Assembly (NCBI RefSeq): GCF_002927635.1
Contig: NZ_PRDS01000004.1
Location: 124,001 to 188,000 of the forward strand
Origin: Albidovulum inexpectatum
Lineage (GTDB): Bacteria > Pseudomonadota > Alphaproteobacteria > Rhodobacterales > Rhodobacteraceae
Direction of reading: 5' to 3'
Length of the DNA: 64,000 bases
A program made the position numbers and the translations under genes. Positions 21,909 through 63,739 of the stretch are shown here, in pieces. The notes under the pieces were generated by a model, which had not been told where the DNA came from, ran no database searches, and worked only from the letters and a program-made list of their open reading frames with translations. Position 1 is the first letter of the stretch. Each line of letters starts with the position of its first letter.

Positions 21909-21914
21909 GCTTGC

Positions 21915-23779: not shown

Positions 23780-24490
23780 ATGGAAACACCGGACAACCTG
23801 AAACACCTGCTGGAACCGCTGGCGATCACGGCGCCAACGGCAACCGACCAGGTGTTCCACGCGCTGCAGCAGGCCATCCTGTCCATGCAGCTGCCACCAG
23901 GCGCGCGCATTTCGGAAGCCGAGATTGCCCGTCAGATGGGTGTGTCGCGTCAGCCCGTGCGCGACGCATTCTTTCGTCTCTCAAGTCTTGGCTTTCTGAT
24001 CGTCCGGCCTCAACGCGCCACGCTGGTGGCCCCCATATCCAGAAAGGCGGTCGAAAATGCAGTTTTCACCCGCACTGCGCTGGAAGTCGAATGCCTGCGA
24101 GCGGCGGCGGCGCGACTGGATGACCGGGGCCGGGCGGCGTTGCGCGCGAATCTCGACGCGCAGCGGGATGCACATGACAACGGCGATCGGGCGCGGTTTC
24201 ACGCGCTGGACGAGGCATTCCACGAATTGCTTTGCAAACTGTCTGGCCAGGCACATGTATGGCCCATGATTCAGGGCCAGAAGGGGCATATGGATCGCGT
24301 GCGTTACCTGACCCTGTCGGATGACCGCCGCCCGGCTGTCCTTGCCGAACATGGTGCGATCGTCTCGGCGCTGCTGGGGGGTGATGCCGATCGGGCCGAA
24401 GGCGTGCTGCGTGACCATATCGGAACGATTCACGCGCGTCTGGCCGAGGCGTATCAACAATACCCGACCCTTTTTGGAGATGTCACATGA
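23780..24490 (+). CDS. GntR-family (FCD) regulator upstream of kdgK
   Basis: This 236-residue regulator has a winged helix at residues 25-90 (ARISEAEIARQMGVSRQPVR) and an FCD effector domain (DEAFHELLCKLSG with D-x3-H). It is translationally coupled to kdgK through an ATGA overlap and divergent from kduID, so it most likely controls both. Its recognition helix region is nearly identical to that of the GntR at 19727 (MGVSRQPVRDAF versus FGISRQPVRDAF), which suggests the two read the same operator type. Confidence 0.88.
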   Translation: METPDNLKHLLEPLAITAPTATDQVFHALQQAILSMQLPPGARISEAEIARQMGVSRQPVRDAFFRLSSLGFLIVRPQRATLVAPISRKAVENAVFTRTALEVECLRAAAARLDDRGRAALRANLDAQRDAHDNGDRARFHALDEAFHELLCKLSGQAHVWPMIQGQKGHMDRVRYLTLSDDRRPAVLAEHGAIVSALLGGDADRAEGVLRDHIGTIHARLAEAYQQYPTLFGDVT

Positions 24491-25404
24491 CCCGTACGCT
24501 GCTGTCGATCGGCGAGTGCATGATCGAACTTGCTCCCCGGTCCGAGGATTGCCTGACGATGGGCTTTGCGGGCGATACGTTCAATACGGCCTGGTATGCC
24601 CGGCGCAGCCTGCGGCCGGGTGATGATATCGATATCGCCTATCTCAGCGCGGTCGGCGACGATACGCCCTCGATGCGGATGACGGATTTCATTCGCGACG
24701 CCGGGATTCGGCCGATCCTTCGCGTCCGGCAGGGCCGATCGGTCGGGCTTTACCTGATCTCTCTGAACAATGGCGAACGCAGCTTCTCGTACTGGAGAGA
24801 CAGTTCGGCCGCGCGCAGTCTTGCCGACGATCTGGAAGAGCTGCCCGTAAAGGGGCAGGGCGACCTTGTATTCATCTCCGGAATCACCCTGGCGATCCTG
24901 CCCCAGGCCGGGCGCAAGCGTCTGTATGCGGCGCTGGAGAATGCGCGAAGGAACGGGGTCACGGTTGCCTTCGATCCGAATCTGCGTCCGCGCCTGTGGT
25001 CGGACACTGACGAGATGCGCCGGGAAATCATGCGCGCCGCGTCGCTGGCGGATATCCTGCTGCCGTCGCATGAGGACGAGGCGACGCATTTCGGCGATCG
25101 CGACCCGCATGCGACCGCCCGCAGATACCTTGCGGCCTGTTCCGCACCGGGCGCGATGGTCGTTGTCAAGGATGGCCCCGGGCCCGTTCGCATCTACGCA
25201 GGCGGCACACATTGGGACGTTCCCACCGTAAAGTCACCGCATGTCGAGGACACAACGGCGGCGGGCGACAGCTTCAACGGACGATTCCTGGTTGGCCTGA
25301 TGCGGGGCGAACCCGTGGCCGAAGCCGCGCGCGCCGCTTGCCAGCTCGCCGCGCAGGTGATCGGAAAGCGCGGTGCGCTCGTGGCGGTCGACGGGGTTTC
25401 CTGA
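24487..25404 (+). CDS. kdgK: 2-keto-3-deoxygluconate kinase KdgK (PfkB family)
   Basis: This 305-residue sugar kinase phosphorylates KDG to KDPG, the Entner-Doudoroff intermediate. The PfkB signature DTTAAGDSFNGRF holds the catalytic Asp near the C terminus, and the KDG-kinase-like N terminus reads LSIGECMIELAP with GFAGDTFNTAWY. It closes the alginate/pectin route encoded around it. The start overlaps the gntR stop. No KDPG aldolase gene is present here and it must lie elsewhere. Confidence 0.9.
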   Translation: MTRTLLSIGECMIELAPRSEDCLTMGFAGDTFNTAWYARRSLRPGDDIDIAYLSAVGDDTPSMRMTDFIRDAGIRPILRVRQGRSVGLYLISLNNGERSFSYWRDSSAARSLADDLEELPVKGQGDLVFISGITLAILPQAGRKRLYAALENARRNGVTVAFDPNLRPRLWSDTDEMRREIMRAASLADILLPSHEDEATHFGDRDPHATARRYLAACSAPGAMVVVKDGPGPVRIYAGGTHWDVPTVKSPHVEDTTAAGDSFNGRFLVGLMRGEPVAEAARAACQLAAQVIGKRGALVAVDGVS

Positions 25405-49066: not shown

Positions 49067-50017
49067 ATGAAGACGCTTTCGATACTTGCCGCCGCCGCAC
49101 TTGCCATCATGACCCTGCCGGCACAGGCGGAATTCCGGCTTGATCCAAGGTTCAGCGACAAGGACGGCGACCTGGTCGCCGACATTCCCGAAGATCCGGC
49201 CCAGCAGATCGACCCGGACACGCTGATCTTTGCCTATACGCCGGTCGAGGACCCGGCGGTCTATGCCGAGGTCTGGCAGGGCTTCCTGGACCACATGGCC
49301 GAGGTGACGGGCAAGAAGGTACAATTCTTCCCGGTCCAGTCGAACGCCGCCCAGATCGAGGCGATGCGGGCGGGCCGCCTGCATGTGGCGGGCTTCAACA
49401 CCGGCTCGAACCCGCTGGCGGTGGCCTGCGCGGGCTTCCGGCCCTTTGCCATGATGGCCGCGGCCGATGGCAGCTTTGGCTACGAAATGGAGATCATCAC
49501 CTATCCCGGATCGGGCATCGAGAAGGTCGAGGACATCAAGGGCAAGCAGCTGGCCTTCACCTCCGAGACCTCGAATTCGGGCTTCAAGGCGCCCTCGGCG
49601 ATCCTGAAGGCCGATTACGGCATGGAGCCGGGCCGCGACTTCGAGCCGGTCTTCTCGGGCAAGCATGACAACTCGATCCTGGGCGTGGCCAATCGGGATT
49701 ACCCGGCCGCGGCGATCGCCAATTCAGTCAAGGCGCGGATGATCGAACGCGGCGTGATCACGCCCGACCAGATCGTCACGATCTACACGTCGCAGACCTT
49801 CCCCACCACGGGCTATGGCGTGGTCTACAACCTCAAGCCCGAGCTGCAGGAAAAGATCAGGGAGGCGTTCTTCAGCTTCGACTGGGAAGGCACCAAGCTG
49901 CAGGAGGAATTCTCGAAGAGCGGCGAGGCGCAGTTCATCCCCATCACCTTCAAGGACGACTGGGCGGTGATCCGCAAGATCGACGAAGCCAACGGCGTCG
50001 AATACAACTGCAACTGA
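49067..50017 (+). CDS. phnD: Phosphonate-type ABC transporter substrate-binding protein PhnD
   Basis: This 316-residue binding protein has a signal peptide (residues 1-22) and the PhnD blocks [39 protein letters not shown] and [15 protein letters not shown], the last supplying the oxyanion-binding loop. The first of four genes in phnDCEE. Ligand could be a phosphonate, phosphite or related compound; the C-P lyase genes are not in the window. An approximate set of GTCA repeats about 65-85 bp upstream is not good enough to call a Pho box. Confidence 0.9.
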
Positions 50018-50039
50018 GCAGGCCACCGACAGACCAGTC

Positions 50040-50063
50040 GCGGGCGGCCCACGGGTGGCCCGC
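50040..50063 (+). terminator. Inverted repeat between phnD and phnC
   Basis: GCGGGC and GCCCGC form a 6-bp stem with further pairing possible inside the 12-base loop, directly before the phnC ribosome site. An attenuator role is inferred. Confidence 0.4.
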
Positions 50064-50082
50064 ATCTTCCACGGGAGGGGTG

Positions 50083-50904
50083 ATGCTCAGGATCGAACAC
50101 CTGTCCAAGACCTATCGCACCGGCGACACCGCGCTTTCGGACGTGTCGCTGGAAGTGCCCAAGGGCCAGATCCTTGGCCTGATCGGCCCGTCCGGGGCGG
50201 GCAAGTCAACCCTGATCCGTTGCATCAACCGGCTGGTCGAGCCAAGCGCGGGCGCGGTCTGGCTGGGCGATGTCAACCTGGTCACGCTGGGCAAGGCCGA
50301 GCTGCGCCGCCAACGTCGCCGGATCGGCATGATCTTTCAGGAATATGCCCTGGTCGAGCGCCTGACGGTGATGGAAAACGTCCTGTCGGGGCGGCTGGGC
50401 TACGTGTCCTTCTGGCGCAGTTTCACGCGTCGTTTCCCGCCGCAGGACATCCAGCGCGCCTTTGCGCTGCTCGACAGGGTGGGGCTGCTGGACCATGCCG
50501 ACAAGCGGGCCGATGCGCTGTCCGGCGGCCAGCGCCAGAGGGTGGGCATCGCGCGGGCCCTGGCGCAGGACCCCGAGCTGTTGCTGGTCGATGAGCCAAC
50601 CGCCAGCCTGGACCCCAAGACCAGCCGCCAGATCATGCGGCTGCTGACCGAGATCTGCGCCGAGCGCGGCCTGCCCGCCATCGTCAACATCCACGACGTG
50701 CCGCTGGCCCAGCAATTCATGCAGCGGATCGTCGGGCTGCGCGCGGGGCGCATCGTCTTTGACGGGCCGCCCGAGGCGCTGACCCACGAAGTGCTGACCC
50801 GCATCTATGGCGAGGAGGACTGGAACGCCATGAAGCGCGGCGACGAGGAACAGGCCCGCGCCGAGGCCGAGGCGCGCGAACGCATGGAGGCGCTGGCGCA
50901 ATGA
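50083..50904 (+). CDS. phnC: Phosphonate-type ABC transporter ATPase PhnC
   Basis: This 273-residue ATPase has Walker [10 protein letters not shown], signature LSGGQRQR, Walker [14 protein letters not shown] and the PhnC-like insertion [21 protein letters not shown] precedes the ATG at 50083; a GTG one codon earlier is also in frame. The C-terminal 20 residues form a charged Glu/Arg helix. The stop overlaps phnE1. Confidence 0.92.
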
Positions 50905-51707
50905 GCCCGATTGCCTATCCCACATCGTGGCGTCGCCCGCCGCAGATCATCCGCGACCGCCGTTGGCGCATCGCGGTGCAGCTGGGCATCCTTGTCTATC
51001 TGGCATTGGCGGTCTCGACCGTCGAGGTGAACTGGGCGCGGGTCTATGAAGGTCTGGATCGCGGCTGGAACTTCGTTCTGGGCTTCCTGCGGCCCGATTT
51101 CACCAGCCGCTGGACGGACATCGCCAAGGGCCTGACCGAAAGCCTGACGATGACGCTGACCTCGACCGTGGTCGGGGTGGCGATCTCGCTCCCGATCGGG
51201 ATCGGCGCGGCGCGCAACCTTGCGCCCCGCCCGGTCTATTACCTGTGCCGGGGCATCATCGCGGTCAGCCGCGCGCTGCAGGAGGTCATCGTGGCGATCT
51301 TCCTGGTCGCCATGTTCGGTTTCGGGCCATTCGCGGGCTTCCTGACGCTGAGCTTTGCCACGATCGGCTTTCTGTCCAAGCTTTTGGCCGAGGATATCGA
51401 GGATATCGACGCCGGCCAGGTCGAGGCGATCCGGGCCACCGGCGCCAGCTGGGCGCAGGTCGTCAACTATGCCGTCCAGCCGCAGGTCATGCCGCGGCTG
51501 ATCGGGTTGTCGCTGTATCGGCTGGACATCAATTTTCGCGAAAGCGCGGTCATCGGCATCGTCGGCGCGGGCGGCATCGGGGCCACGCTGAACACCGCGA
51601 TCGACCGTTATGAATACGACAGCGCCGGGGCGATCCTGTTGATCATCATCGCCATCGTCATGGTGGCGGAATACGGCTCCAGCCATCTGCGGAAATACCT
51701 GCAATGA
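50901..51707 (+). CDS. phnE: Phosphonate-type ABC transporter permease PhnE (first)
   Basis: This 268-residue permease has six predicted helices and the EAA-like loop [21 protein letters not shown] followed by [18 protein letters not shown]. It pairs with the second PhnE. ATGA overlaps connect it to phnC and to the next permease. Confidence 0.9.
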
Positions 51708-52516
51708 CCGAGATTTCGCATCACAGCCAGGTCTGGTCCCATCGCACGCCCCGCACGCGCCTGTTCATGTGGGTCGGCTGGCTGGCGCTGGTGGCGCTGT
51801 TCGTCTGGTGCTGGCAGATCATGACACGCGACACGATCTGGTTCTTCGTCGCCGACGCGCCACGACAGGCGGCCGACATCGCGGGACGGATGGTGCCGCC
51901 GCGATGGTCCTATCTGGGCGAGCTGTGGCTGCCCCTGTGGGACACGATCAACATCGCCACGCTGGGCACGATCGGCGGCGTCATCATGGCCGTGCCGGTG
52001 GCCTTCCTGGCCGCGCGCAACACCACGCCCTCGGCCCGCTTCCTGCGCCCCGTCGCGCTGTTCGTCATCGTGGCCTCGCGCTCGATCAACTCGTTGATCT
52101 GGGCGCTGCTCCTGGTGGCGATCATCGGGCCGGGGCTGCTGGCCGGAATCGTGGCGATCGCCCTGCGTTCGATCGGCTTCGTGGGCAAATTGCTGTACGA
52201 GGCGATCGAGGAAACCGACCAGAGCCAGATCGAGGCCATCGAGGCCACCGGCGCCAGCCCCGCGCAGGTGCTGAACTACGGCATCGTGCCGCAGATCATG
52301 CCCGCCTTCTGGGGTATCACGGTGTTCCGTTGGGACATCAACATCCGCGAAAGCACGATCCTCGGTCTGGTCGGCGCGGGCGGCATCGGGCTGAAGCTGC
52401 AGGCCTCGCTGAACGTGCTGGCCTGGAGCCAGGTCACCGTGATCCTCTTGCTGATCCTTGCCACGGTGGTGATCAGCGAATGGGTCTCGGCCCGGATGCG
52501 CCACGCGATCATCTGA
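51704..52516 (+). CDS. phnE: Phosphonate-type ABC transporter permease PhnE (second)
   Basis: This 270-residue permease has the loop SQIEAIEATGASPAQVLNYGI and RESTILGLVGAGGIGLKL, paralogous to the first PhnE at the same place. It ends the phnDCEE operon. The next 1.1 kb contains decayed genes, so anything that once followed in this operon may have been lost. Confidence 0.9.
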   Translation: MTEISHHSQVWSHRTPRTRLFMWVGWLALVALFVWCWQIMTRDTIWFFVADAPRQAADIAGRMVPPRWSYLGELWLPLWDTINIATLGTIGGVIMAVPVAFLAARNTTPSARFLRPVALFVIVASRSINSLIWALLLVAIIGPGLLAGIVAIALRSIGFVGKLLYEAIEETDQSQIEAIEATGASPAQVLNYGIVPQIMPAFWGITVFRWDINIRESTILGLVGAGGIGLKLQASLNVLAWSQVTVILLLILATVVISEWVSARMRHAII

Positions 52517-53643: not shown

Positions 53644-54651
53644 TTAACGCTGCGGGGCCCCCGTTGTTGCGCGCGTCACCAGGCGGGCCGAGACCTCGGC
53701 AACGACGGGCGGCATCTGCGGATCGGCGATCCTGTCCAGCAGCGTCTGCGCCAGTTTCTGGCCCAGCTTGTAGGGTGCCACGCTCAGCGTGGTCAGCGGC
53801 GGGATAACCAGCGCGGCCTCCTCGGTATCGTCAAAGCCGATGACGGACACTTCGCGGCTCGGCTGGATTCCCATACGCACGAGCGCCAGGCACGCCCCGA
53901 TCGCCACCATGTCGCCGTTGCACACGACCGCCGTCACCTGCGGGTGATCGCGCATCAGTGCCTGCATCTGGACAAGGCCCGCCTGCTTGGTATCGTCGCT
54001 GTCCCAGATGATCGGTGCCGCCAGACCACGTTCGGCCATCTGGCGGCGGTAGCCCGCAATCCGATCGCGCCGCACCGGTCCCATGCCCTGACCGCCCAGA
54101 TAGGCGATGTCCTTGTGCCCAAGATCGGCGAGGTGATCGACGGCCGTCTGCAGGGCCTCGGCATTTCGGATCCCGACATGGTCGAGATTCTGCCCGGGAT
54201 TGCGCAGGAAGGTGACCGTCGGAATTCCGTGAGCGCGCAACAGTTCGAAGGCTTCGTCCGGTGTATCGAGTGCGGGAACCCACAGCACGCCGCCACGACC
54301 GTGCCGGATGAAGGCCTGTAGCTGGCGATCCTGTCGTGCCACGTCGTCGCGCATGTCGAAGATCGAGACGAGGTAGTTCTGCCGTTCCAGCAGATCGACG
54401 GCGCCGCTGACGACTTCGGCATTGAAGGGGTTGTGCAGCTGGTTGATGACGAACCCGATTTCGCGGTTGTCGCCCGACCGCATCGCCGCGGCGCGAAGGT
54501 CGGGGACATAACGGATCTCACGCGCCACGCGCGCCACCTTCTCACGTGTCGCCCGGGAAATTCGGCCGGTGCCACGCAGCGCCTGACTGGCGGTGGCGAT
54601 CGATACGCCGGCATTGCGGGCCACGTCGGCCAGGGTAGGGCGTTCCGTCAT
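53644..54651 (-). CDS. LacI-family regulator of the putative mannosylglycerate operon
   Basis: This 335-residue repressor has the N-terminal helix-turn-helix PTLADVARNAGVSIATASQA and a LacI effector domain (GFVINQLHNPFNAEVVSGAV, and VIGFDDTEEAALVIPPLTT). It is divergent from the sugar ABC/GH63/kinase operon across a 288-bp gap that carries an 18-bp near-perfect palindrome. The inducer is presumably the imported glycoside or a product of it. The start ATG at 54651 is preferred over a TTG two codons earlier. Confidence 0.88.
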   Translation of the reverse strand: MTERPTLADVARNAGVSIATASQALRGTGRISRATREKVARVAREIRYVPDLRAAAMRSGDNREIGFVINQLHNPFNAEVVSGAVDLLERQNYLVSIFDMRDDVARQDRQLQAFIRHGRGGVLWVPALDTPDEAFELLRAHGIPTVTFLRNPGQNLDHVGIRNAEALQTAVDHLADLGHKDIAYLGGQGMGPVRRDRIAGYRRQMAERGLAAPIIWDSDDTKQAGLVQMQALMRDHPQVTAVVCNGDMVAIGACLALVRMGIQPSREVSVIGFDDTEEAALVIPPLTTLSVAPYKLGQKLAQTLLDRIADPQMPPVVAEVSARLVTRATTGAPQR

Positions 54652-54780
54652 GTGCAATTCAGCTTAATCGATTTTGCACGAAATGAACGACTTTCATCCC
54701 CGGAAAGCAAGACATTTCGCGGCTACGCGTCATGGGGGCCAAATCTTTTGCAGGATGCATCCGGAAAATTGCTTGACGGT

Positions 54781-54798
54781 TGATATAACGTTGTATCA
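54781..54798. promoter_or_regulatory. LacI-type operator upstream of the glycoside ABC operon
   Basis: TGATATAACGTTGTATCA is an 18-bp inverted repeat centred on CG with a single non-complementary pair. A TTGACG (54774-54779) abuts it and could be the -35 box. A second, shorter palindrome AATCGATT (54666-54673) lies close to the regulator start. Layout fits a repressor controlling the divergent operon and itself. Confidence 0.7.
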
Positions 54799-54939
54799 CA
54801 CTTTCGTCACGACGCCCCGAATTTCGGATCGATGGGGGATCGACAGGCCTGGATGACTGGCCCGGGCGTCCGCGCCCGATGGTGCGCGAAAATGCACGGC
54901 CGGGATGCCCCGGCATGTTGAACGAAAGGGAGGAAAGAG

Positions 54940-56208
54940 ATGTCATTTCGTTGCCATGTCGCGGGGGTGGTGTCTGCCGTCGCGATCGGCTTGTCAGCGA
55001 CAGGCGCACAGGCCGACATCCTGTTCTGGTCAACCCAGGCCAAACCGGTGGAAGAAGCCCAGGCCATGCGCGAGCAGGTCTTGTCGGGCTTTTCAGGCGG
55101 GGTGGACTATCAGCCGAATGACGGTGGCCCGTGGCTGACCCGCCTGAAGGCCGAACTGGAATCGGGCACCGGGACGATTGGCGTGCTGGGCGCGCTGCAC
55201 GGCGATTTCGCCGCGCTCGATCCCGACGACCTGATCGATCTGGACGATCTGGGCGTCAAGGCGGCCTCGGAAACGTTCAACACTCTCGCCCGGCTTGGCA
55301 CGGATCACATGCAGTATGTGCCATGGATGCAGGCCAGCTATATCATGGCAGCCAACAGGAAGGCGCTGGAATACCTGCCCGAGGGCGCGGATATCAACGC
55401 CTTGACCTACGACCAGCTGATCGAATGGGCCGCCAATGTCCATGAGGCCACGGGAGAACCGAAATTCGGCTTCCCCGCCGGTCCGAAGGGGCTGAAGCAT
55501 CGCTTCTTCCAGGGTTACTTGTATCCATCCTTCACGAATGGCGTCGTGCGCACTTTCGCCTCGGACGATGCCGTTGTCGCGTGGGAAAAGATGCGCGAAC
55601 TGTGGTCGCACACGAACCCCGCCTCGACGAATTTCTCGTTCATGCAGGAACAGCTGCTGAGTGGGGATGCGTGGATCGTCTTCGACCATACGTCGCGCCT
55701 GGCACAGGCGTTCAATGAGCGGCCCGACGAATTCGTGGCCTTCCCGGCGCCTGCCGGACCCAAGGGTCGCGGCTTCATGCCGGTGCTGGCCGGACTTGCG
55801 ATTCCGCGCACGGCGCCCGATGTCGAGGCCTCGAAAGAGCTGGTCCGCTACATGATGCGGCCCGAAACGCAGATCGCGACCCTGCGGGCGACGAACTTCT
55901 TCCCCGTTGTCGATGTCGATCTGCCCGACGATCTGCCTCCGGCGGTCAAGGCGGCCGGCGATGCGATCGCCCGGATGAGCGCGGCCCCCGACGCCAATCC
56001 CGGGCTTCTGCCGGCTGGCTTGGGCGACAAGGGCGGCGACTTCAACCGCGTTTTCGTGGATACGTTCGAACGTATCGTGCTTGCCGGCCAGGACATCCGT
56101 GCCGTTCTTGATGAGCAGAAGCAGCGCCTGGCCCAGATCATGCAGGAAACCGGTGCGCCATGCTGGGCGCCGGACGCCCCGTCCGAGGGTGCCTGCCCGG
56201 TCGAGTGA
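54940..56208 (+). CDS. Sugar ABC transporter substrate-binding protein (CUT1), putative mannosylglycerate binder
   Basis: This 422-residue periplasmic protein has a signal peptide (cleavage near residue 25, after GAQA). It belongs to the extracellular solute-binding family 1 (GDAWIVFDHTSRLAQAF and GGDFNRVFVDTFERIVLAG). Cys near the C terminus (GAPCW, GACPVE) could form a disulfide. GGGAGGAAAG precedes the ATG at 54940. Ligand is inferred from downstream enzymes to be a small anionic glycoside such as mannosylglycerate. Confidence 0.82.
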   Translation: MSFRCHVAGVVSAVAIGLSATGAQADILFWSTQAKPVEEAQAMREQVLSGFSGGVDYQPNDGGPWLTRLKAELESGTGTIGVLGALHGDFAALDPDDLIDLDDLGVKAASETFNTLARLGTDHMQYVPWMQASYIMAANRKALEYLPEGADINALTYDQLIEWAANVHEATGEPKFGFPAGPKGLKHRFFQGYLYPSFTNGVVRTFASDDAVVAWEKMRELWSHTNPASTNFSFMQEQLLSGDAWIVFDHTSRLAQAFNERPDEFVAFPAPAGPKGRGFMPVLAGLAIPRTAPDVEASKELVRYMMRPETQIATLRATNFFPVVDVDLPDDLPPAVKAAGDAIARMSAAPDANPGLLPAGLGDKGGDFNRVFVDTFERIVLAGQDIRAVLDEQKQRLAQIMQETGAPCWAPDAPSEGACPVE

Positions 56209-56219
56209 CCGACATCCCC

Positions 56220-56246
56220 GAACCGGGCGACCCTTTCGCCCGGTTC
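56220..56246 (+). terminator. Inverted repeat after the glycoside-binding protein gene
   Basis: GAACCGGGCG and CGCCCGGTTC form a perfect 10-bp stem with a 7-base loop, just before the first permease gene. Attenuation or message protection is inferred. Confidence 0.55.
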
Positions 56247-56256
56247 CCTTGCCAAC

Positions 56257-57138
56257 ATGACCGCACCAACGCGCAATCGGGGGACCGGTTCGATGAACGC
56301 GCGCCTGCTGCCCTATATATTGATCCTGCCTGTCACGTTGTTCCTGTGCCTGTTCTTCCTGTATCCCTTCGTTCTGGTTGCGGCGCAGGCATTCACCACG
56401 GGCGACGGCTTCTCGCTGGAGAATTTCCGCGAGGTCGTGGGCTACTGGAAGTTCCCGATCTCGCTGAAGAACACGTTGCTTCTGGCCGCAGCGGTGGTGC
56501 CGGTTCAACTCGCGCTGGCTCTTCTGATGGCCACGATGGTGAACAGGATGCGCCGGGGGCGCGACCTGGTCCTGTATATCTGGACGATTCCGTTGGGCAT
56601 TTCGGATCTTGCCGCCGGGATGATCTGGCTGGCGATCTTCGAACAGTCGGGCTTTCTGAACACGATTCTGGGCGCGGTTGGCGCCATCGACCGTCCGGTC
56701 AATTTCCTGAGCTACCAGCATATGGGTGTCGTGTTCCTGGCAATCGCACTGGCCGAGATCTGGCGCGCGACGGCGATCATGCTGGTCATCCTTGTCGCCG
56801 GGATCGGGCTGATCCCGAAGGAATACTACGAGGCCGCCGAGGTGTTCGGCGCGGGACCATGGCAACGGTTCCGTCGCATCACGCTGCCCCTGTTGCGCCC
56901 ATCGCTGCAGACCGCGCTGGTCTTGCGCGTGATCCTGGCCTTCGAGGTCTTCGCGGTCGTTGCGGCCCTTGGCGGCACGCTTTTCCCGGTGCTGATGAGC
57001 GAAACCTACGCCTATCAGTTCGACCTGCTTGACAGCGGCGCGGCCGCCGCAATGGCGCTGATCATCCTTGCAATCTCGATTGCCTCGACGCTGGTGATCC
57101 TGCGCGTGCTGCGGGTGCCAAAGGGAGCTTCGATATGA
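56257..57138 (+). CDS. Sugar ABC transporter permease (MalF/UgpA type)
   Basis: This 293-residue inner-membrane protein has six predicted helices and the EAA loop EYYEAAEVFGAGPWQRFRRITLP. The N terminus MTAPTRNRGTGSMNARLLPY leaves a second possible start (ATG 12 codons in). Overlaps the next permease by ATGA. It forms the pore with that protein. Confidence 0.88.
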   Translation: MTAPTRNRGTGSMNARLLPYILILPVTLFLCLFFLYPFVLVAAQAFTTGDGFSLENFREVVGYWKFPISLKNTLLLAAAVVPVQLALALLMATMVNRMRRGRDLVLYIWTIPLGISDLAAGMIWLAIFEQSGFLNTILGAVGAIDRPVNFLSYQHMGVVFLAIALAEIWRATAIMLVILVAGIGLIPKEYYEAAEVFGAGPWQRFRRITLPLLRPSLQTALVLRVILAFEVFAVVAALGGTLFPVLMSETYAYQFDLLDSGAAAAMALIILAISIASTLVILRVLRVPKGASI

Positions 57139-57962
57139 CCGTCACTCCGTCCACCGACACGCGGCGCGCGGGGCGTATCCTGTATGGTGCGGGTGTCGTC
57201 CTGTTATGCGCCTGGGTGCTGGGACCAATCTATCTGCTGGTCGTCAACACGCTGTCCTCGCCCGAAACGGTCAACACTTTCCCCAAACCGTTGATCCCCG
57301 AATTTGATACGGGCAGTCTGCGCTTCTTTCTTGAATTTGCCGGAATGCTGTCAGCGCTGAAAAACTCGGTTCTGGTGGCGGGGCTGACGATGATCCTGTC
57401 CATCCTGATCGGAGCCCCCGCAGGTTATGCGCTGTCGCGCTTCGACTTTCGTGGCAAGCAGGCCTTCCGGATGCTGATCCTGTTGACGCGGGCCTTTCCG
57501 CTGCCGCTGCTGGCGCTTCCGCTGGCGGTGATGTTTATCCGAACGGGCCTGGACGACACCATTCTGGGGCTTGCGCTGGTGCACACGACGCTGGCGGTCC
57601 CATTCTCGGTTCTCATCACCTATTCGCTCTTCTCGGGCATTCCTCTGGAGCTGGAAGAAGCCGCATGGACGCTGGGCTGTACACGGGTATCGGCCTTTGT
57701 CCGGGTGGTCCTGCCGCTGATCCTGCCCGGCATTACGGCCAGCGCGATCTTTGCCTTCGTCATCTCGTGGAACGAGGTCTTTGCCGCGGCCGTGCTGACC
57801 ATCGAGAACCGGACACTGACCGCGTTTCTGCTGCAAAATCTCGACACTTCGCCCCTGCACCTGAAATTCGCGGGCGGCTTCATCCTGGTCGTGCCGGCGC
57901 TGATCTTCATCTTCGCCGTCCGCAAGTACCTGTTTGCCATGTGGGGAATCGCCAACCGCTGA
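57135..57962 (+). CDS. Sugar ABC transporter permease (MalG/UgpE type)
   Basis: This 275-residue permease has six helices and the EAA loop LELEEAAWTLGCTRVSAFVRV. Family feature FAFVISWNEVFAAAVLT follows. Coupled to the first permease, 32 bp before the ATPase gene. Confidence 0.88.
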   Translation: MTVTPSTDTRRAGRILYGAGVVLLCAWVLGPIYLLVVNTLSSPETVNTFPKPLIPEFDTGSLRFFLEFAGMLSALKNSVLVAGLTMILSILIGAPAGYALSRFDFRGKQAFRMLILLTRAFPLPLLALPLAVMFIRTGLDDTILGLALVHTTLAVPFSVLITYSLFSGIPLELEEAAWTLGCTRVSAFVRVVLPLILPGITASAIFAFVISWNEVFAAAVLTIENRTLTAFLLQNLDTSPLHLKFAGGFILVVPALIFIFAVRKYLFAMWGIANR

Positions 57963-57994
57963 GGTGGGGCGACACGTCACGGAGAATTACCGAA

Positions 57995-59035
57995 ATGGCC
58001 GAAATCCAGATCCGCAATGTCGCCAAGCAGTTTGGCAGCTATACTGCATTGCGTGACATCAACCTGACCATTGCCGACCAGGAGTTCATGGTGCTTCTGG
58101 GCGCCTCGGGCTGTGGCAAGACGACCCTTCTGCGCATCATCGCGGGCCTGGAGACCGCAACCACCGGCGAGGTCTGGATCGGGGGGCGCCGGGTGGACCA
58201 CCTGCCGCCGCGCGATCGCGGCATCGCGATGGTGTTCCAGAATTATGCGGTCTTTCCGCATCTGACCGTGTTCGAGAATATTGGCTTTGGCCTGCGTATG
58301 CGCCGCATGGCCGAAACCGAGCTGCGCCAGCGTGTCGAACGGGTCGCCGAGCTGATGCATATCGAGCAGCTGCTCAAGCGTTATTCGGGCGAATTGTCTG
58401 GCGGCCAGCGCCAGCGGGTCGCGGTGGCCCGGGCTCTCGCGATGGAACCCGACGTGATCCTGATGGACGAACCCCTGTCGAATCTCGACGCGCTCCTGCG
58501 GCTCGAGATGCGGACCGAGTTGAAGGGCGTTCTGGCCGAAAGCCGCACCACCGCAATCTATGTCACCCATGATCAGGTCGAGGCCATGAGCCTGGCCGAC
58601 CGTATCAGCGTGATGCATCAGGGGCGCATCGTACAGGCCGCAAGCCCGATCGAGGTCTATCGCAACCCGGCCACCGAATTCGTCGGTGGTTTCATCGGCA
58701 ACCCGCCGATGAACTTCCTGCCTGCCCGCCCGCTGGGCGAGGGCAGGTGGCAGGTTGCCGGTCTGGTCGTCGATGGCCCGCGCCTCGACAAGCCCCTGCA
58801 TTTCGCGATTCGTCCCGAAGACCTGCGTCCGGCCGAAAACGGCCTGCAAGCCCGGGTCCGCGTGGTCGAGCCGCTGGGTGCGCATGTTCTGGTAACCTGC
58901 GATGTGGACGGGGCGATGCTTCGTGCCGTCCTTGACAGCGACATCAGCCTGAATCCAGGCGACCGGCTGACACTTGCCCCCCAACCCGACCGCATCCGCT
59001 GGTTCGACCCGGAAACGACGCGCGCGGTCCACTGA
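57995..59035 (+). CDS. Sugar ABC transporter ATPase (MalK/UgpC type)
   Basis: This 346-residue ATPase has Walker A GASGCGKTT, signature LSGGQRQR, Walker B VILMDEPLSNLD and switch YVTHDQVEAM, plus a TOBE-type C-terminal domain. The open frame extends upstream in phase with nothing; the ATG at 57995, with GGAGAATTAC ahead, gives the proper start. Powers uptake of the glycoside processed by the three enzymes that follow. Confidence 0.92.
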   Translation: MAEIQIRNVAKQFGSYTALRDINLTIADQEFMVLLGASGCGKTTLLRIIAGLETATTGEVWIGGRRVDHLPPRDRGIAMVFQNYAVFPHLTVFENIGFGLRMRRMAETELRQRVERVAELMHIEQLLKRYSGELSGGQRQRVAVARALAMEPDVILMDEPLSNLDALLRLEMRTELKGVLAESRTTAIYVTHDQVEAMSLADRISVMHQGRIVQAASPIEVYRNPATEFVGGFIGNPPMNFLPARPLGEGRWQVAGLVVDGPRLDKPLHFAIRPEDLRPAENGLQARVRVVEPLGAHVLVTCDVDGAMLRAVLDSDISLNPGDRLTLAPQPDRIRWFDPETTRAVH

Positions 59036-59044
59036 GAGACAGAC

Positions 59045-60322
59045 ATGCACGACACGCTGATCGCCGAAGCCCGCGCCATCCTGCGCCGCAACGACCGCGG
59101 CGCCTATACCGTGCCAACCCACGGTCTGTATCCGTTCCAGTGGAACTGGGACTCTGCCCTGACCGCGCTGGGGTTTTCGCATTTCGATATCGACCGTGCC
59201 TGGACCGAGATCGAGACCCTGTTCGCGCACCAGTGGCCCGACGGCATGGTGCCCCACATCATCTTTCACCAACCCGATGACGGCTATTTTCCCGGCCCCG
59301 AGGTCTGGGACACGGGCCGTCCGGTCCCGACATCGGGGATCACGCAACCGCCAGTCGCCGGTTTCGCGGTCCGTCGGCTGTTCGAACGATCTCGAAGCGA
59401 CCCGGCCGCGCGCGAACGGGCGCGCCGTCTCCTGCCGCGCATCCATGCGTGGCATGAATGGTTTCACCGCACGCGCGATCCGCAGGGCACGGGTCTGGTC
59501 GCAATCATCCACCCTTGGGAATCGGGGCGGGACAACTCGGTCGATTGGGACGCCGCCCTGGAAAGGGTGCCAACCGAAGGCGTTGCGGCCTTCCGCCGCC
59601 GCGACACGATCCATGCCGATCCCGCGCACCGTCCAACGGACGAGCAATACCGGCGCTACATCTGGCTGGTGCAGCATTTTCGCAACCTGAACTGGGACAC
59701 GGCGCGCCTGCACGAGGCCTCGCCGTTCCGGATCGTCGATCCGGGTTTCAACGGGATCCTGATCCGCTCCTGCTCTGACCTGGCGGAGCTTGCCGACGAA
59801 CTGGGTCAATCCGAAATCGCCGCGCAATCCCGGGCATTTGCCGAACGGGGCAGGGTCGCACTCGAGACCCTGTGGGACGACGATCTGGGCCAGTATCTTT
59901 GTCTGGATCGTGCCACCGGCGGCCATGTGAAAAGTGCCTCGGTCGGGGGCTTGCTTGCGGCCTTCGCCATATTGCCGCGCCGACGCGCCGGGGCAATCGC
60001 CGAACGGGTGCACAGGCTGGCAGCGCGCGCCCGCTTTGTCGTGCCCAGCCATGATCCGGACGCACCCGGATTCGACGCGCGCCGCTACTGGCGCGGGCCA
60101 GTCTGGCTGATCGTGAACTACATGATCGCCGACGGTCTGGTCCGATCCGGTGAAGACGCCTGTGCCCGGAGCATCCTGGACGACAGCCTGTCGCTGATCG
60201 CCACGGGGGGCTTTGCCGAATACTACGATCCCATGACCGGCGCGCCCTGCGGCGGGGGGCACTTCACATGGACCGCAGCGATGGTTATCGAGATGCTGAG
60301 CAACCAGCGGACACCGGCATGA
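59045..60322 (+). CDS. GH63-type glycoside hydrolase, probable mannosylglycerate (or glucosylglycerate) hydrolase
   Basis: This 425-residue cytoplasmic enzyme has the (alpha/alpha)6-type blocks of the mannosylglycerate-hydrolase branch of GH63: THGLYPFQWNWDSALTALG near the start and GFAEYYDPMTGAPCGGGHFT near the end. Probable acid and base are Asp167 or Asp169 (SVDWD) and Glu392 (FAEYY), unverified. It would split the glycosyl-glycerate into hexose and glycerate. The mannose-type isomerase and glycerate kinase that follow favour mannosylglycerate over glucosylglycerate. No signal peptide, consistent with hydrolysis after import. Confidence 0.75.
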   Translation: MHDTLIAEARAILRRNDRGAYTVPTHGLYPFQWNWDSALTALGFSHFDIDRAWTEIETLFAHQWPDGMVPHIIFHQPDDGYFPGPEVWDTGRPVPTSGITQPPVAGFAVRRLFERSRSDPAARERARRLLPRIHAWHEWFHRTRDPQGTGLVAIIHPWESGRDNSVDWDAALERVPTEGVAAFRRRDTIHADPAHRPTDEQYRRYIWLVQHFRNLNWDTARLHEASPFRIVDPGFNGILIRSCSDLAELADELGQSEIAAQSRAFAERGRVALETLWDDDLGQYLCLDRATGGHVKSASVGGLLAAFAILPRRRAGAIAERVHRLAARARFVVPSHDPDAPGFDARRYWRGPVWLIVNYMIADGLVRSGEDACARSILDDSLSLIATGGFAEYYDPMTGAPCGGGHFTWTAAMVIEMLSNQRTPA

Positions 60323-61005
60323 AGCGATCGCGCATCAACCAGATCATGGCCGAGGCGGACGAGCTGATCCGCCGGCATGGTTTCGTCCTGCCGCCCTTTG
60401 CGCGGTGGAGCCCCGAAGAGTTCCGCGCGCGCCGCGACGTGGCGCGCCACCTGATCGATGCGCGCTGTGGCTGGGACATCACCGATTACGGCGCGAATGA
60501 TTTCGACCGGATGGGCCTGTTCCTGTTCACGCTGCGCAACGGGCGGCTGGCCGACCTGCAGGCCGGACGCGGCATGTGCTATGCGGAAAAGCTGCTGATC
60601 TCGCGCCGGGATCAGCTGTCGCCGATGCATACCCATCGGCTCAAGGCCGAGGACATCATCAACCGCGGCGGGGCGACGCTGGTGATCGAGCTGTATGGCT
60701 CGGACGATGCGGGCAATTTCGCCGAGGATCGCGGCGGCACGGCGATGTGCGACGGCATCGCGCGCACATACGCCCCGGGCGAGAAGCTGCGCCTCGCGCC
60801 CGGCGAAAGCGTGACGCTGATGCCCGGCGACTGGCATGCCTTCTGGGCCGAGGGCGGCGACGTGCTGATCGGAGAGGTCTCGACCGTCAACGACGACGAG
60901 ACCGACAACATCTTCCGCGACCCGATCGGTCGCTTTGCCACGATCGAGGAGGACGAAGCGCCCGCCCATCTTCTGGTCAGCGATTATCGCGACTGGCTGG
61001 GCTAG
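60319..61005 (+). CDS. D-lyxose/D-mannose ketol-isomerase-type cupin
   Basis: This 228-residue protein matches the cupin D-lyxose isomerase family, whose members also isomerise D-mannose to D-fructose. Metal-site residues appear as His104 and His106 (MHTHRLKAED), Glu111, and His173 (GDWHAFW). N terminus contains the family helix INQIMAEADELIRRHGFVLP. ATGA overlap with the GH63 gene shows close coupling. In this operon the likely role is turning released mannose into fructose. Confidence 0.82.
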   Translation: MKRSRINQIMAEADELIRRHGFVLPPFARWSPEEFRARRDVARHLIDARCGWDITDYGANDFDRMGLFLFTLRNGRLADLQAGRGMCYAEKLLISRRDQLSPMHTHRLKAEDIINRGGATLVIELYGSDDAGNFAEDRGGTAMCDGIARTYAPGEKLRLAPGESVTLMPGDWHAFWAEGGDVLIGEVSTVNDDETDNIFRDPIGRFATIEEDEAPAHLLVSDYRDWLG

Positions 61006-61008
61006 GCC

Positions 61009-62292
61009 ATGCACGGTGCGCAGCCTGACCCAAGGCACGATCCGCAAGGCTTTCTGCGCGCGCTGTTCGACGCGGCCGTCGCTGCGGCCGATCCCTTGCG
61101 CGTCGGCCCTCCGCACCTGCCGCCACGGTCGAAGGGGCGGCTTGTGGTCATCGGCGCGGGCAAGGCCAGCGCGCGCATGGCCGAGGCGGTCGAAGCGCAT
61201 TACGGCCCCTGCGAGGGGCTTGTCATCACCCGCTATGGGCATGCCCGCCCGACGCGCGGGATCGAGATCGTCGAAGCCGGCCACCCGGTGCCCGATGCCG
61301 CGGGCGTGGCTGCGACCGAACGGATGCTGCGGCTTGTCTCGGGGCTGGGGCCCGACGATCTGGTCCTGGCGCTGATCTCGGGCGGCGGCTCGGCGCTGCT
61401 TTGCGCACCCGCGGCTGGACTGACCCTGGCCGACAAGATGGCGGTGACGCGGGCGCTTCTGGATTGCGGGGCGCCCATCGATCAGATCAACACGGTGCGC
61501 AAGCATCTGAGCCGAGTCAAGGGCGGGCAGCTGGCCGCAGCCTGCCATCCGGCGCGGGTGCTGGGGCTGATGATCTCGGACGTGCCCGGGGATGATCCGG
61601 CGGTGATCGCCTCGGGCCCGCTGTCGTCCGAACGCTCGACACCGGACGAGGCGCTGGCGATCCTGGACCGCCATGGACTGGATCTGCCGGAGGCGGTGCG
61701 GAGCGCACTGATGCGGCGCTCATCGGTGGTGCCGCCGGGGGATCCGCGCCTGACCAATGTCCAGACACGGATCATCGCCGCGCCATCACGCTCGCTGCAG
61801 GCGGCGGCCGATCTGGCGCGCAGGGCGGGATGCGAGCTGCGGCTGCTGGGCGACGACCTTCAGGGAGAGGCGCGGGAGCTGGGCGCCGAACAGGCGCGCA
61901 TGGCGCTGTCGCTGCTGCCCAGGGTGCGCGCCGACGGCCGGCCCCTGGTAATCCTGTCGGGGGGCGAATGCACGGTGACGCGGCGCGGCGACGGCATCGG
62001 CGGCCCGAACGCGGAATTCGCGCTGGCCGCGGCGCTGGCGCTGGACGGGGTGCCGGGCATCCATGTCATTGCCTGCGATACCGATGGCGTGGACGGCGCG
62101 GCCGAGATCGCAGGCGCCATCGCCGGGCCCGAAACGCTGCCCCGCGCCCGCGCGGCGGGCATCGACCCCGGCACGGCGCTGGCGCGAAACGACGCACACG
62201 GCTTCTTTGGCGCAATCGGCGGACAGGTCGTGACCGGCCCCACCCTGACCAATGTCAACGACTTCCGCGCAGTTCTGGTGGTGCCGGGGTAG
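61009..62292 (+). CDS. Glycerate 2-kinase (GckA/TtuD, MOFRL family)
   Basis: This 427-residue kinase converts D-glycerate to 2-phosphoglycerate. N-terminal Rossmann-like block RLVVIGAGKASARMAEAVEA and LISGGGSALLCAP are present, and the MOFRL domain shows ILSGGECTVTRRGDGIGGPN and ACDTDGVDGAAEIAG. It lies 3 bp after the isomerase gene. With the GH63 enzyme upstream it accounts for the glycerate half of the glycoside. Older annotations of this family as hydroxypyruvate reductase are unlikely to be right. Confidence 0.9.
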   Translation: MHGAQPDPRHDPQGFLRALFDAAVAAADPLRVGPPHLPPRSKGRLVVIGAGKASARMAEAVEAHYGPCEGLVITRYGHARPTRGIEIVEAGHPVPDAAGVAATERMLRLVSGLGPDDLVLALISGGGSALLCAPAAGLTLADKMAVTRALLDCGAPIDQINTVRKHLSRVKGGQLAAACHPARVLGLMISDVPGDDPAVIASGPLSSERSTPDEALAILDRHGLDLPEAVRSALMRRSSVVPPGDPRLTNVQTRIIAAPSRSLQAAADLARRAGCELRLLGDDLQGEARELGAEQARMALSLLPRVRADGRPLVILSGGECTVTRRGDGIGGPNAEFALAAALALDGVPGIHVIACDTDGVDGAAEIAGAIAGPETLPRARAAGIDPGTALARNDAHGFFGAIGGQVVTGPTLTNVNDFRAVLVVPG

Positions 62293-62338
62293 AGCCGATC
62301 ACCGTATCGGCGCACGGGTCAGGCTGGCACCATGCACG

Positions 62339-62365
62339 ACGCCCCGGCGGTTGCCGGGGCGTTTT
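62339..62365. terminator. Rho-independent terminator after the glycerate kinase
   Basis: ACGCCCCGGC and GCCGGGGCGT form a 10-bp stem with a 4-base loop followed by a short T run. It lies between convergent operons and can also end the Tad-type genes on the minus strand. Confidence 0.85.
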
Positions 62366-62386
62366 CGCATTCGTGGTGGTCTTCGA

Positions 62387-63739
62387 TCAGCCCGCCAAGC
62401 GGAAATAGGCAGCCTCGAAATTGTTGTTCATGCCTGCGCCGTTGCAGAAGCCGAACGCGCCGTTCGAGGTGACGTCAAGTTTGCCGCCGGCGACGATGGA
62501 CGCGCCCTCGATCCCGTCGGCATTGGCCGTCATCGAGATATCGCCCGCGGCCAGGATCTGGCTGCCATAGATATTGACCTTCGAGGCAAACTCGACCCCG
62601 CCGCGTGTCACCAGTTGAACGTCGCCGCCTTCGGCGCAACCATCGTCCCGGCCCAGCGTGATGTCGGACGAGGCAAAGACCGATTTCGCGTCGGTATTGT
62701 CCACCAGGATCACGGCGTCCTCGATGACCGCGCCGGCCTTGATCTGAATCCGGCAATTCGTGATCAGCACGGCCTCGCGGATCACGGCATCGCTTTCGAT
62801 CGTCATGTGCGTCTTGGAATTCGGACAGGTCGCGCGGTGAATGCGGCCCTCCTGGATCGTGCCGGCCGTGATGCCCTTCTTGTAGTTCACCGTAATGATA
62901 TTACCCGAGTCGAGATAATCCCTGTAATAGGGCGAGCCCGCGATCATGTAGCCCACGCCGGCATCATAGGGCTCCTCGGCGCCCAGAAATATGTCGTCGA
63001 TGCGATTGAGGATCCGGGGCGCATAGGACCCATCGCGCAAAGCCTGGGCCAGCCCGGTATTGGACTCGAAGCCCGAGGCGGGCAGGTCGATGTTGCGCTT
63101 GTCGGGCATCGACACGACCACGCCGGGTTCGAACGTGTTACCCGAACTGACCGAGACATAGCTTTGCGAATGAATGCAGAACCCGGCCTTGAACACGCCG
63201 TTCGACTGCATGTCCACGCGATCCATCGCGACAAAGCCTTCGCGGAAGCAGGACGGATAATAGGTCGTGTAGACAGATTGCGTCGTGACGTTCCAAGCGT
63301 TCAGACCGGCCAGCTTGAGCAGCAGAACCGGCACCCCGTTTCCGTTCGCTTCGGCCTGGCGGGTCGTGACCAGCACCGCGTCGCGCGCGGCGGGGTCCGC
63401 GATGAACTGATGCCTGGTTTCGTCCCAGCGGCCAAAGCGGATGTCATCCGCGGTCAGCACGGTGCCATAGCGCGATGGCGGCATGTTGTCGGCCGCGAGC
63501 TGCAGCGCGATCTGCCTGGCCTCGTCCGCCGATTTGAGTTCGCGCGAATACAGGGCCGCATGGGCAACCGTATCGGCCGTGACCTGCAGCCGGGTGCGCG
63601 CGGCGATGGCATTGGCATAGTCCACGGCAAGGCCGCCCATCATCAGGCAGGCCAGAAGGATCAACAACGCAAATGCCGTTATCCCGCCCGCTTGGTCCCC
63701 GGCCAGATCCCGCACATGTTTGGTCAGACGGCTTTTCAT
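62387..63739 (-). CDS. TadG-like pilus assembly protein
   Basis: This 450-residue protein starts with a short cytoplasmic stretch and one helix (about residues 18-40) in the TadE/TadG style (GGITAFALLILLACLMMGGLAVDYANA, conserved Asp-Tyr-Ala). The C-terminal half is a run of beta-strand-like units (IREAVLITNC, IEDAVILVDN, GVEFASKVNI) suggesting a beta-helix or repeat barrel instead of the usual von Willebrand A domain. It is 3 bp downstream of a TadE-like gene. Probably part of Flp/Tad pilus biogenesis. Confidence 0.72.
   Translation of the reverse strand: MKSRLTKHVRDLAGDQAGGITAFALLILLACLMMGGLAVDYANAIAARTRLQVTADTVAHAALYSRELKSADEARQIALQLAADNMPPSRYGTVLTADDIRFGRWDETRHQFIADPAARDAVLVTTRQAEANGNGVPVLLLKLAGLNAWNVTTQSVYTTYYPSCFREGFVAMDRVDMQSNGVFKAGFCIHSQSYVSVSSGNTFEPGVVVSMPDKRNIDLPASGFESNTGLAQALRDGSYAPRILNRIDDIFLGAEEPYDAGVGYMIAGSPYYRDYLDSGNIITVNYKKGITAGTIQEGRIHRATCPNSKTHMTIESDAVIREAVLITNCRIQIKAGAVIEDAVILVDNTDAKSVFASSDITLGRDDGCAEGGDVQLVTRGGVEFASKVNIYGSQILAAGDISMTANADGIEGASIVAGGKLDVTSNGAFGFCNGAGMNNNFEAAYFRLAG

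What the first reader, a model, noticed from the sequence alone, without database searches (positions are those of the whole stretch)
54652..62365. Complete candidate pathway for import and catabolism of mannosylglycerate (digeneaside)
A single LacI-controlled unit encodes a CUT1 ABC importer, a GH63-type glycosylglycerate hydrolase, a D-lyxose/D-mannose isomerase-type cupin and a MOFRL glycerate 2-kinase. Taken together these convert mannosylglycerate to fructose plus 2-phosphoglycerate with no missing step except fructose phosphorylation. The presence of a mannose-capable isomerase argues for mannosylglycerate and against glucosylglycerate. The known E. coli route (PTS plus GH38) is different. 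Mannosylglycerate is the red-algal solute digeneaside, which would fit an alga-associated bacterium that also eats alginate.
Basis: partly seen in the sequence, partly recalled or inferred. Interest (0 to 1): 0.82.

Follow-up and report, generated by a model that had tools for sequence, protein, structure and literature searches.

The report
Likely mannosylglycerate scavenging operon
A bacterium carries a compact, switchable gene set that most likely imports the red-algal solute mannosylglycerate (digeneaside) and breaks it into usable sugar and glycerate; the enzymes are of known kinds, I found no earlier description of this combination, and the exact sugar still needs a bench test.

Summary
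Window 53644-62292 carries a divergent LacI repressor and a seven-gene unit: binding protein, two permeases, ATPase, MGH1-like GH63 hydrolase, PF07385 isomerase, MOFRL glycerate kinase. The hydrolase keeps the checked catalytic and substrate residues and is nearer Thermus mannosylglycerate hydrolase (47%) than mycobacterial glucosylglycerate hydrolase (34%). A palindromic operator at 54782-54797 recurs in 55 of 55 distinct related intergenic regions. The isomerase follows the hydrolase within 1.5 kb in 33 of 59 operons of the window's clade, against 0 of 32 in the sister group and 2 of 67 in a second operon type. The kinase is the genome's only MOFRL protein, and no PF02595 kinase was found. 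Import and hydrolysis of a glycosylglycerate is well supported. Mannosylglycerate as main substrate is likely but unproven: this hydrolase family cleaves both mannosyl- and glucosylglycerate, 26 of 59 operons lack the isomerase, and a Meiothermus operon with an orthologous importer (53% identical binding protein) carries a phosphorylase with glucosylglycerate-type motifs. Known enzymes, apparently a new pathway variant. The alginate/algal lifestyle claim is circumstantial.

The parts
53644..54651 (-). LacI-family repressor, divergent
   Evidence: PF00356 1.2e-15 and PF13377 2.2e-33; ATG at 54651 read; orthologue divergent in related operons
54782..54797 (.). Palindromic candidate LacI operator GATATAACGTTGTATC
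   Evidence: present in 55 of 55 distinct LacI-SBP intergenic regions at up to 2 mismatches; only place in own genome at up to 2 mismatches
54940..56208 (+). Solute-binding protein of a CUT1-type ABC importer
   Evidence: PF01547 7.7e-19; predicted fold mean pLDDT 90, sugar-type SBP fold
56257..57138 (+). ABC permease 1 (possible later ATG at 56293)
   Evidence: PF00528 1.8e-19
57135..57962 (+). ABC permease 2
   Evidence: PF00528 7.4e-17
57995..59035 (+). ABC ATPase with TOBE_2 domain (UgpC/MalK type)
   Evidence: PF00005 1.8e-35, PF08402 7.5e-13; ATG at 57995
59045..60322 (+). GH63-type glycosylglycerate hydrolase
   Evidence: PF22422 2.5e-115; 398.8 bits to 2z07/4wva; active-site residues kept
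60319..61005 (+). D-lyxose/D-mannose isomerase-type cupin
   Evidence: PF07385 3.9e-100; 195.2 bits to D-lyxose isomerase 3kmh, with the H-x-H...E and H motifs aligned
61009..62292 (+). DUF4147+MOFRL glycerate 2-kinase; the only MOFRL protein in the genome
   Evidence: PF13660 2.5e-86, PF05161 1.4e-33; 277.7 bits to 2b8n; sole copy

Best explanation
This is a scavenging operon for extracellular glycosylglycerates, most likely 2-O-alpha-D-mannosyl-D-glycerate (digeneaside). With no substrate, the LacI protein sits on the 54782-54797 operator and silences the unit. When substrate is present, the binding protein delivers it to the ABC importer; in the cytoplasm the GH63 enzyme cuts it with water to D-mannose and D-glycerate; the cupin isomerase turns D-mannose into D-fructose, which a kinase encoded elsewhere phosphorylates; the MOFRL kinase makes 2-phosphoglycerate. 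Shown here: genes, order, active-site conservation, operator conservation, clade-specific isomerase coupling. Inferred: ligand identity, repression, each enzyme activity, fructose phosphorylation.
For: Pfam and PDB matches. In a 174-row alignment 101 of 101 clade-A rows, the window's among them, keep MhGgH Y36, W40, W42, D43, H78, Y88, Q115, W177, G180, D182, R216, Y222, Y375, W376, W381, E419, W436 (residues named in PMC6608630, passages seen). Position 434 is F as in Thermus MgH, not Q as in the MhGgH chains 5ohc, 5oi1 and 5oiv; Thermus MgH cleaves MG and GG about equally, MhGgH prefers GG (PMC6608630 Discussion). Operator in 55 of 55 distinct regions, 39 exact. Isomerase downstream in 33/59 clade-A1 loci (32 of them within 60 bp) v 0/32 A2 (Fisher 7e-9) and, in the family set, 9/17 v 2/67 type B (3e-6). 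Genomes holding PF07385 anywhere: A1 17/18, A2 5/7, B 48/67, no near-full-length hydrolase 85/203. A complete same-order operon is annotated in Paracoccus seriniphilus. The importer is orthologous to one in Meiothermus (53% identical binding protein over 403 residues), where it also precedes a GH63 hydrolase. No mannosylglycerate synthase PF09488 in own genome, so recycling of a self-made pool by that route is not indicated.
Against: The hydrolase family does not discriminate the two sugars. The 13 A2 binding proteins aligned are 59-72% identical to the window's, suggesting one shared ligand although A2 lacks the isomerase. 26/59 A1 operons lack the isomerase; on the A1 tree its presence changes 16 times against a shuffled mean of 19.4 (minimum 14), so it is close to random with respect to ancestry. 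Unlinked isomerases carry no operator (0 of 20 regions at up to 2 mismatches, 8 of them from A1 genomes; one region, L226, has a 3-mismatch site). The Meiothermus operon has a GH13_18 phosphorylase with TETN and PYEL motifs typical of glucosylglycerate phosphorylase (motifs from passages of PMC7178133 and PMC10608839). The isomerase is below NCBIfam's D-lyxose/D-mannose cut-off (240.7 v 350). The kinase has P where the T. maritima kinase has R in GGRNQE.
Confidence: 0.58

Rival explanations
1. The operon takes up glucosylglycerate, or both glycosylglycerates without preference; the isomerase is a minor accessory that only matters when mannosylglycerate is present.
For: Family enzymes cleave both (PMC6608630 Discussion); NCBIfam's best model is glucosylglycerate hydrolase, though under cut-off (378.4 v 550); GGaP-like phosphorylase in a Meiothermus operon whose importer is orthologous; A2 operons with a similar binding protein never have the isomerase (0/32); none of 295 genomes carries both near-full-length type A (25) and type B (67) hydrolases (hypergeometric 0.0012), as if they did one job.
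Against: Glucose needs no mannose/lyxose isomerase, yet the isomerase is attached to A1 operons 33 of 59 times. Position 434 is Thermus-like, not like wild-type MhGgH.
Confidence: 0.32
2. The substrate is a different alpha-mannoside or related glycoside (mannosylglyceramide, a mannosylglucosylglycerate, a lyxoside, or an N-acylated glycoside), with glycerate not always the aglycone.
For: Several A2 relatives have a PIG-L-like gene right after the hydrolase; the PF07385 family is best known for D-lyxose (recalled).
Against: The glycerate-contacting residues (Y36, W40, Y88, R216, Y375) are kept; a glycerate kinase is joined in 13 of 59 A1 operons. No PIG-L gene is in the window's operon.
Confidence: 0.07
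3. The isomerase and kinase are unrelated passengers next to a glycosylglycerate operon.
For: Both families are common in the family anyway, linked copies included (PF07385 in 155 of 295 genomes, PF05161 in 278 of 295); an isomerase-kinase pair exists in one genome where PF22422 was not found (L226); isomerase presence is near random on the A1 tree.
Against: Same strand, ATGA overlap, same order in many operons; 33/59 v 0/32; both are single-copy in this genome, so it depends on these copies.
Confidence: 0.03

Closest known systems
Mannosylglycerate hydrolase MgH (GH63; Thermus thermophilus, PDB 2z07/4wva) and mycobacterial glucosylglycerate hydrolase GgH (PDB 5ohc and others, named only 'hydrolase'; identified by me from residues in PMC6608630)
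   Same: Sequence family, catalytic acid and base, substrate pocket
   Different: 47% and 34% identity; the alpha-proteobacterial enzymes have R instead of M just before the catalytic Asp (101/101 A, 69/71 B); here the enzyme is in an importer operon
Meiothermus taiwanensis plasmid operon (no published description known to me)
   Same: LacI, SBP, two permeases, ATPase, hydrolase in the same order; importer proteins 53-60% identical
   Different: Followed by a GGaP-like phosphorylase, no isomerase or glycerate kinase next to it
E. coli MngAB mannosylglycerate route (PTS plus GH38; recalled)
   Same: Same presumed substrate and outcome
   Different: ABC instead of PTS import, GH63 instead of GH38, free-sugar isomerase instead of a sugar-phosphate route
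Predicted digeneaside degradation genes of Zobellia and other Flavobacteriia (Barbeyron 2016, recalled; mentioned in passages of PMC8072126; digeneaside listed as a possible substrate in a passage of PMC6298971)
   Same: Digeneaside as food for marine bacteria
   Different: Different phylum; the Zobellia paper is not held, so overlap of the enzymes is untested
Glucosylglycerate phosphorylase (GH13_18) clusters with glycerate kinase (PMC7178133 passages)
   Same: Glycosylglycerate breakdown coupled to glycerate kinase
   Different: Phosphorolysis of the glucoside; here hydrolysis plus isomerase

Membership tests
GH63 mannosyl-/glucosylglycerate hydrolase | PF22422 domain over full length | tested here: met
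   386.3 bits v cut-off 27, profile 1-356 of 356
GH63 mannosyl-/glucosylglycerate hydrolase | Catalytic Asp182/Glu419 and substrate residues (MhGgH numbering) | tested here: met
   the 17 listed residues are identical in the window
NCBIfam NF047898 glucosylglycerate hydrolase (equivalog) | score above 550 bits | tested here: not met
   378.4 bits
GH63 mannosyl-/glucosylglycerate hydrolase | hydrolysis of MG or GG | not testable with these tools
   needs assay
PF07385 D-lyxose isomerase family | domain match and metal-site H-x-H...E...H (site recalled) | tested here: met
   334 bits; aligned with 3kmh; both motif patterns in 56 of 60 isomerase hits, duplicates included
NCBIfam NF051472 D-lyxose/D-mannose isomerase (equivalog) | score above 350 bits | tested here: not met
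   240.7 bits
MOFRL glycerate 2-kinase | DUF4147 plus MOFRL domains | tested here: met
MOFRL glycerate 2-kinase | NCBIfam equivalog cut-offs (550, 670) | tested here: not met
   187.6 and 172.3 bits; the model names suggest archaeal kinases
MOFRL glycerate 2-kinase | Arg of the GGRNQE loop (important in T. maritima enzyme, recalled) | tested here: inconclusive
   P instead of R in 16 of the 17 hits that matched the motif pattern, the window's and one duplicate included; 5 of 22 hits did not match the pattern
CUT1 ABC importer | SBP_bac_1 protein, two BPD_transp_1 permeases, ABC ATPase with TOBE | tested here: met
LacI-type local repressor | LacI HTH plus conserved palindrome in the divergent region | tested here: met
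   binding itself not tested
E. coli MngAB-type system | PTS permease and GH38 hydrolase in the unit | tested here: not met
   neither is in the unit; rest of genome not searched

The most novel reading that the evidence does not exclude
Marine Rhodobacterales share a horizontally spread, single-operator regulon devoted to digeneaside, in which the so-called D-lyxose isomerase family works physiologically as a mannose isomerase, repeatedly recruited behind a mannosylglycerate hydrolase; together with the sister and type B operons, 92 of 295 sampled genomes (294 genera) of the family would eat glycosylglycerates, making these solutes an overlooked marine carbon currency.
Probability: 0.43. Interest if true: 0.65.

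Novelty: new variant of a known kind. Interest (0 to 1): 0.46.

Why it matters
If right, it gives a non-PTS route for mannosylglycerate, assigns a ligand to a large conserved family of importers now labelled only 'sugar ABC transporter' beside a 'trehalase family glycosidase' (annotations seen), gives PF07385 isomerases a natural mannose source, and links red-algal solutes to common marine bacteria through a gene marker that can be counted in metagenomes.

Tried and rejected
Telling MG from GG by hydrolase active-site residues: window, clade A, nearly all of clade B and Thermus MgH agree at the contact positions tested, so it cannot decide. Telling by binding-protein fold: the model is good (pLDDT 90), but the 50 PDB chains shown (of 1274 matches) are mostly oligosaccharide binders, with dinucleotide and glycerophosphodiester (UgpB) binders among them, at 13-20% identity; no ligand hint. 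Isomerase regulon test: no operator at up to 2 mismatches in 20 regions around unlinked isomerases, so the regulon does not extend to them. The first gene-calling attempt lost the hydrolase in 52 of 172 loci and was replaced; 10 loci were still dropped from the neighbour clustering, not from the locus counts. Self-made solute: no PF09488.

Rows and sets: the family set is 295 genomes of 294 genera; 92 had a hydrolase match of 295 bits or more (one, G176, cut by its contig end). Classification by neighbours put a few short-contig loci in A2; the tree moved them, which is why the family set counts 17 A1 loci with room where one search shows 16. The hydrolase tree used 123 of 174 rows (type B thinned to one in four) and is a quick tree with 48 of 120 inner branches unsupported. 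The 80 named loci are the best hits and so biased to close relatives. My first count of 58 distinct operator regions held three duplicates; one search gives 55. The operator pattern was derived from the same regions in which it was counted; its control was a mononucleotide shuffle (0 of 1160 at up to 2 mismatches). In one search the control pattern (pattern read backwards) had 3 places in the genome and the true pattern only the one in the window. Odds were lowered slightly (0.62 to 0.58 for the best explanation, rival 0.28 to 0.32, novel case 0.45 to 0.43) after one search showed that the Meiothermus importer is orthologous.
Full report
WHAT IS THERE. Eight uninterrupted genes form a divergent pair of transcription units: lacI on the minus strand (53644-54651) and, on the plus strand, a seven-gene unit from 54940 to 62292. 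Gaps are short; permease 1/permease 2 and hydrolase/isomerase overlap by four bases. The next gene on the right (62387-63739) runs the other way and is not part of it. The consensus scans found no sigma-70-type promoter at 54500-55000 or 62200-62500 and no terminator at 62200-62500; one terminator-like site on the minus strand at 54914-54899 is about what chance gives (0.7).

ENZYMES. The hydrolase matches Pfam's MGH1-like family over its full profile. Its best solved relative is Thermus TTHA0978 (2z07/4wva; 398.8 bits), then a set of chains at 236-244 bits named 'hydrolase' that I identify as M. hassiacum GgH from the residues given in PMC6608630 (passages and the Discussion section seen). 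That paper calls 4wva mannosylglycerate hydrolase and lists the contact residues; the 17 that I list are kept in clade A (101 of 101 rows, window included) and, with two single-row exceptions (W40, H78), in clade B (71 rows). At position 434 the window, Thermus, clade A and clade B have Phe; the MhGgH chains 5ohc, 5oi1 and 5oiv have Gln, 6g3n has Phe. The paper says that Thermus and Selaginella MgH cleave MG and GG with similar efficiency while MhGgH prefers GG, so sequence alone cannot name the sugar. The isomerase aligns end to end with D-lyxose isomerase 3kmh including the histidine motifs. The kinase has both domains of MOFRL glycerate kinases but carries Pro in the loop where T. maritima has Arg; 16 of 17 motif-matching relatives, the window included, do the same. 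It is the only MOFRL protein of the genome and no PF02595 kinase was found. The isomerase is also the genome's only PF07385 protein.

COMPARATIVE EVIDENCE. PF22422 was found in 115 of 295 genomes (294 genera) of the family at E up to 0.001; 92 had near-full-length matches. I fetched all 92 neighbourhoods and 80 named loci from GTDB contigs (the best 80 of at least 569). Two operon kinds emerge. Type A: SBP, permease, permease, ATPase, hydrolase in that order. Type B: other SBP and permeases, with the ATPase after the hydrolase. Within type A, clade A1 (window; divergent LacI) is supported at SH-aLRT 97 in a quick tree, and the rest (A2; other LacI upstream; Hyphomicrobiales and Rhodobacter-like genera) lie outside. 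The isomerase follows the hydrolase on the same strand within 1.5 kb in 33 of 59 A1 loci with room on the contig (32 within 60 bp), 0 of 32 A2, and 2 of 67 type B of the family set; the kinase within 3 kb in 13 of 59 A1 (12 with isomerase), 0 of 32 A2, 3 of 67 B. Parsimony gives 16 isomerase changes on the A1 tree (200 label shuffles: mean 19.4, minimum 14), so the coupling was made or lost many times and is only weakly inherited. PF07385 is present anywhere in the genome in 17/18 A1, 5/7 A2, 48/67 B and 85/203 without a near-full-length hydrolase. Against a clean 'A1 = mannose, others = glucose' split: B genomes also have more isomerases than genomes without hydrolase (one-sided Fisher 2e-5), and no genome has both A and B (25 and 67 of 295; P = 0.0012), which looks like redundancy of function.

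REGULATION. The LacI-SBP intergenic regions of these operons share the palindrome GRTATAWCGWTATAYC: 55 of 55 distinct regions at up to 2 mismatches (39 exact, 12 with one, 4 with two, after removing three duplicates from the 58); 0 of 1160 mononucleotide shuffles. In 28 of 55 a second site with up to 3 mismatches is present. The window copy is at 54782-54797; in the window the pattern with up to 3 mismatches is expected 0.12 times by chance. It is the only place in the 3.0 Mb genome at up to 2 mismatches. So the repressor most likely governs this operon alone.

SPREAD. The window's binding protein has a strong match in 2 of 60 other relatives searched, both from other genera (76 and 63% identity), and nothing above 25 bits in 21 other genomes of its genus: a patchy island, horizontally acquired or often lost. 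Annotated plasmid copies exist in Paracoccus seriniphilus (all seven genes), Rhodobacteraceae bacterium SC52 and Marinovum algicola (without kinase), and Ruegeria sp. B32 (importer and hydrolase only).

MISSING STEP. Eight PfkB proteins and one of two ROK proteins of the genome were scanned; the best fructokinase-like one is L210 (C6:105349-106257), 150.5 bits to the fructokinase model, cut-off 450. Fructose phosphorylation is thus plausible, not shown.

RIVALS. Glucosylglycerate or both is the serious rival. A Meiothermus taiwanensis plasmid has the same core order followed by a 'sugar phosphorylase' with TETN and PYEL motifs like those that PMC7178133 and PMC10608839 (passages) give for glucosylglycerate phosphorylase. 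Its binding protein is 53%, its permeases 54 and 59%, its ATPase 60% and its hydrolase 44% identical to the window's, whereas one type B binding protein tested is not recognisably similar (E 0.33). So the type A importer is an old, conserved glycosylglycerate importer, and in Meiothermus it may serve glucosylglycerate too. The recurrent isomerase tips the balance to mannosylglycerate for A1, in my judgement somewhat under two to one.

PRIOR WORK. Digeneaside is mannosylglycerate (PMC8490865 passage). Ten searches of the held open library listed no paper that by title, abstract start or the passages I opened describes an ABC-importer plus GH63 plus PF07385 isomerase operon. Subscription papers are mostly not held, and supplements could not be read, so this is no proof of absence. 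PMC8072126 and PMC6298971 (passages) show that digeneaside degradation has been predicted in flavobacteria.

VERDICT. A real, conserved, probably LacI-regulated catabolic operon for glycosylglycerates; mannosylglycerate most likely. Enzymes known, arrangement a new variant.

Noticed in passing
L032, L044, L046, L064, L066, L188, L201, L202; L241:9286-9969; L242:9233-9928: In nine of ten clustered A2-type loci (L182 duplicates L066; the tenth, L196, has it four genes further on) a PIG-L-like gene lies directly after the hydrolase, which hints at an N-acylated or amide form of the solute. Pfam was run on one member only (L242).
   Followed up: partly
L239:2781-11025 (Meiothermus taiwanensis plasmid): Orthologous importer and hydrolase in the same order, followed by a GH13_18 phosphorylase with glucosylglycerate-phosphorylase motifs: hydrolase and phosphorylase side by side.
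   Followed up: partly
type B loci among L033-L122, e.g. L243: A second, differently ordered importer-hydrolase operon kind, in 67 of 295 genomes of the family, never together with a near-full-length type A hydrolase in one genome.
   Followed up: partly
L226:5702-7693: Isomerase and MOFRL kinase as an adjacent pair in a genome without a PF22422 match, next to an integrase-like and a synthetase-like gene.
   Followed up: no
59045-60322: Arg instead of Met just before the catalytic Asp in nearly all alpha-proteobacterial hydrolases aligned (101/101 A, 69/71 B), unlike the Thermus and mycobacterial enzymes.
   Followed up: no
11669-25404: Heparinase-II/III-type lyase with DUF4962, a DctP-type TRAP binding protein, a sugar SBP, a KduI-family protein, two SDRs and a KdgK-like kinase: an unsaturated-uronate pathway whose polymer is not clear.
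   Followed up: partly
49067-52516: Phosphonate-type ABC importer left of the operon: PF12974 binding protein, then an ATPase-like and two permease-like reading frames (by eye).
   Followed up: no
L237:9272-9958 (Marinovum algicola pMaD2): The gene in the isomerase position, which matches the window isomerase (430 bits), is annotated as 'ATP synthase delta chain', a misannotation.
   Followed up: partly
PDB 6g3n against 5ohc, 5oi1, 5oiv: 6g3n has Phe at position 434 where these MhGgH chains have Gln, like Thermus MgH; perhaps an engineered variant or a homologue, not checked.
   Followed up: no
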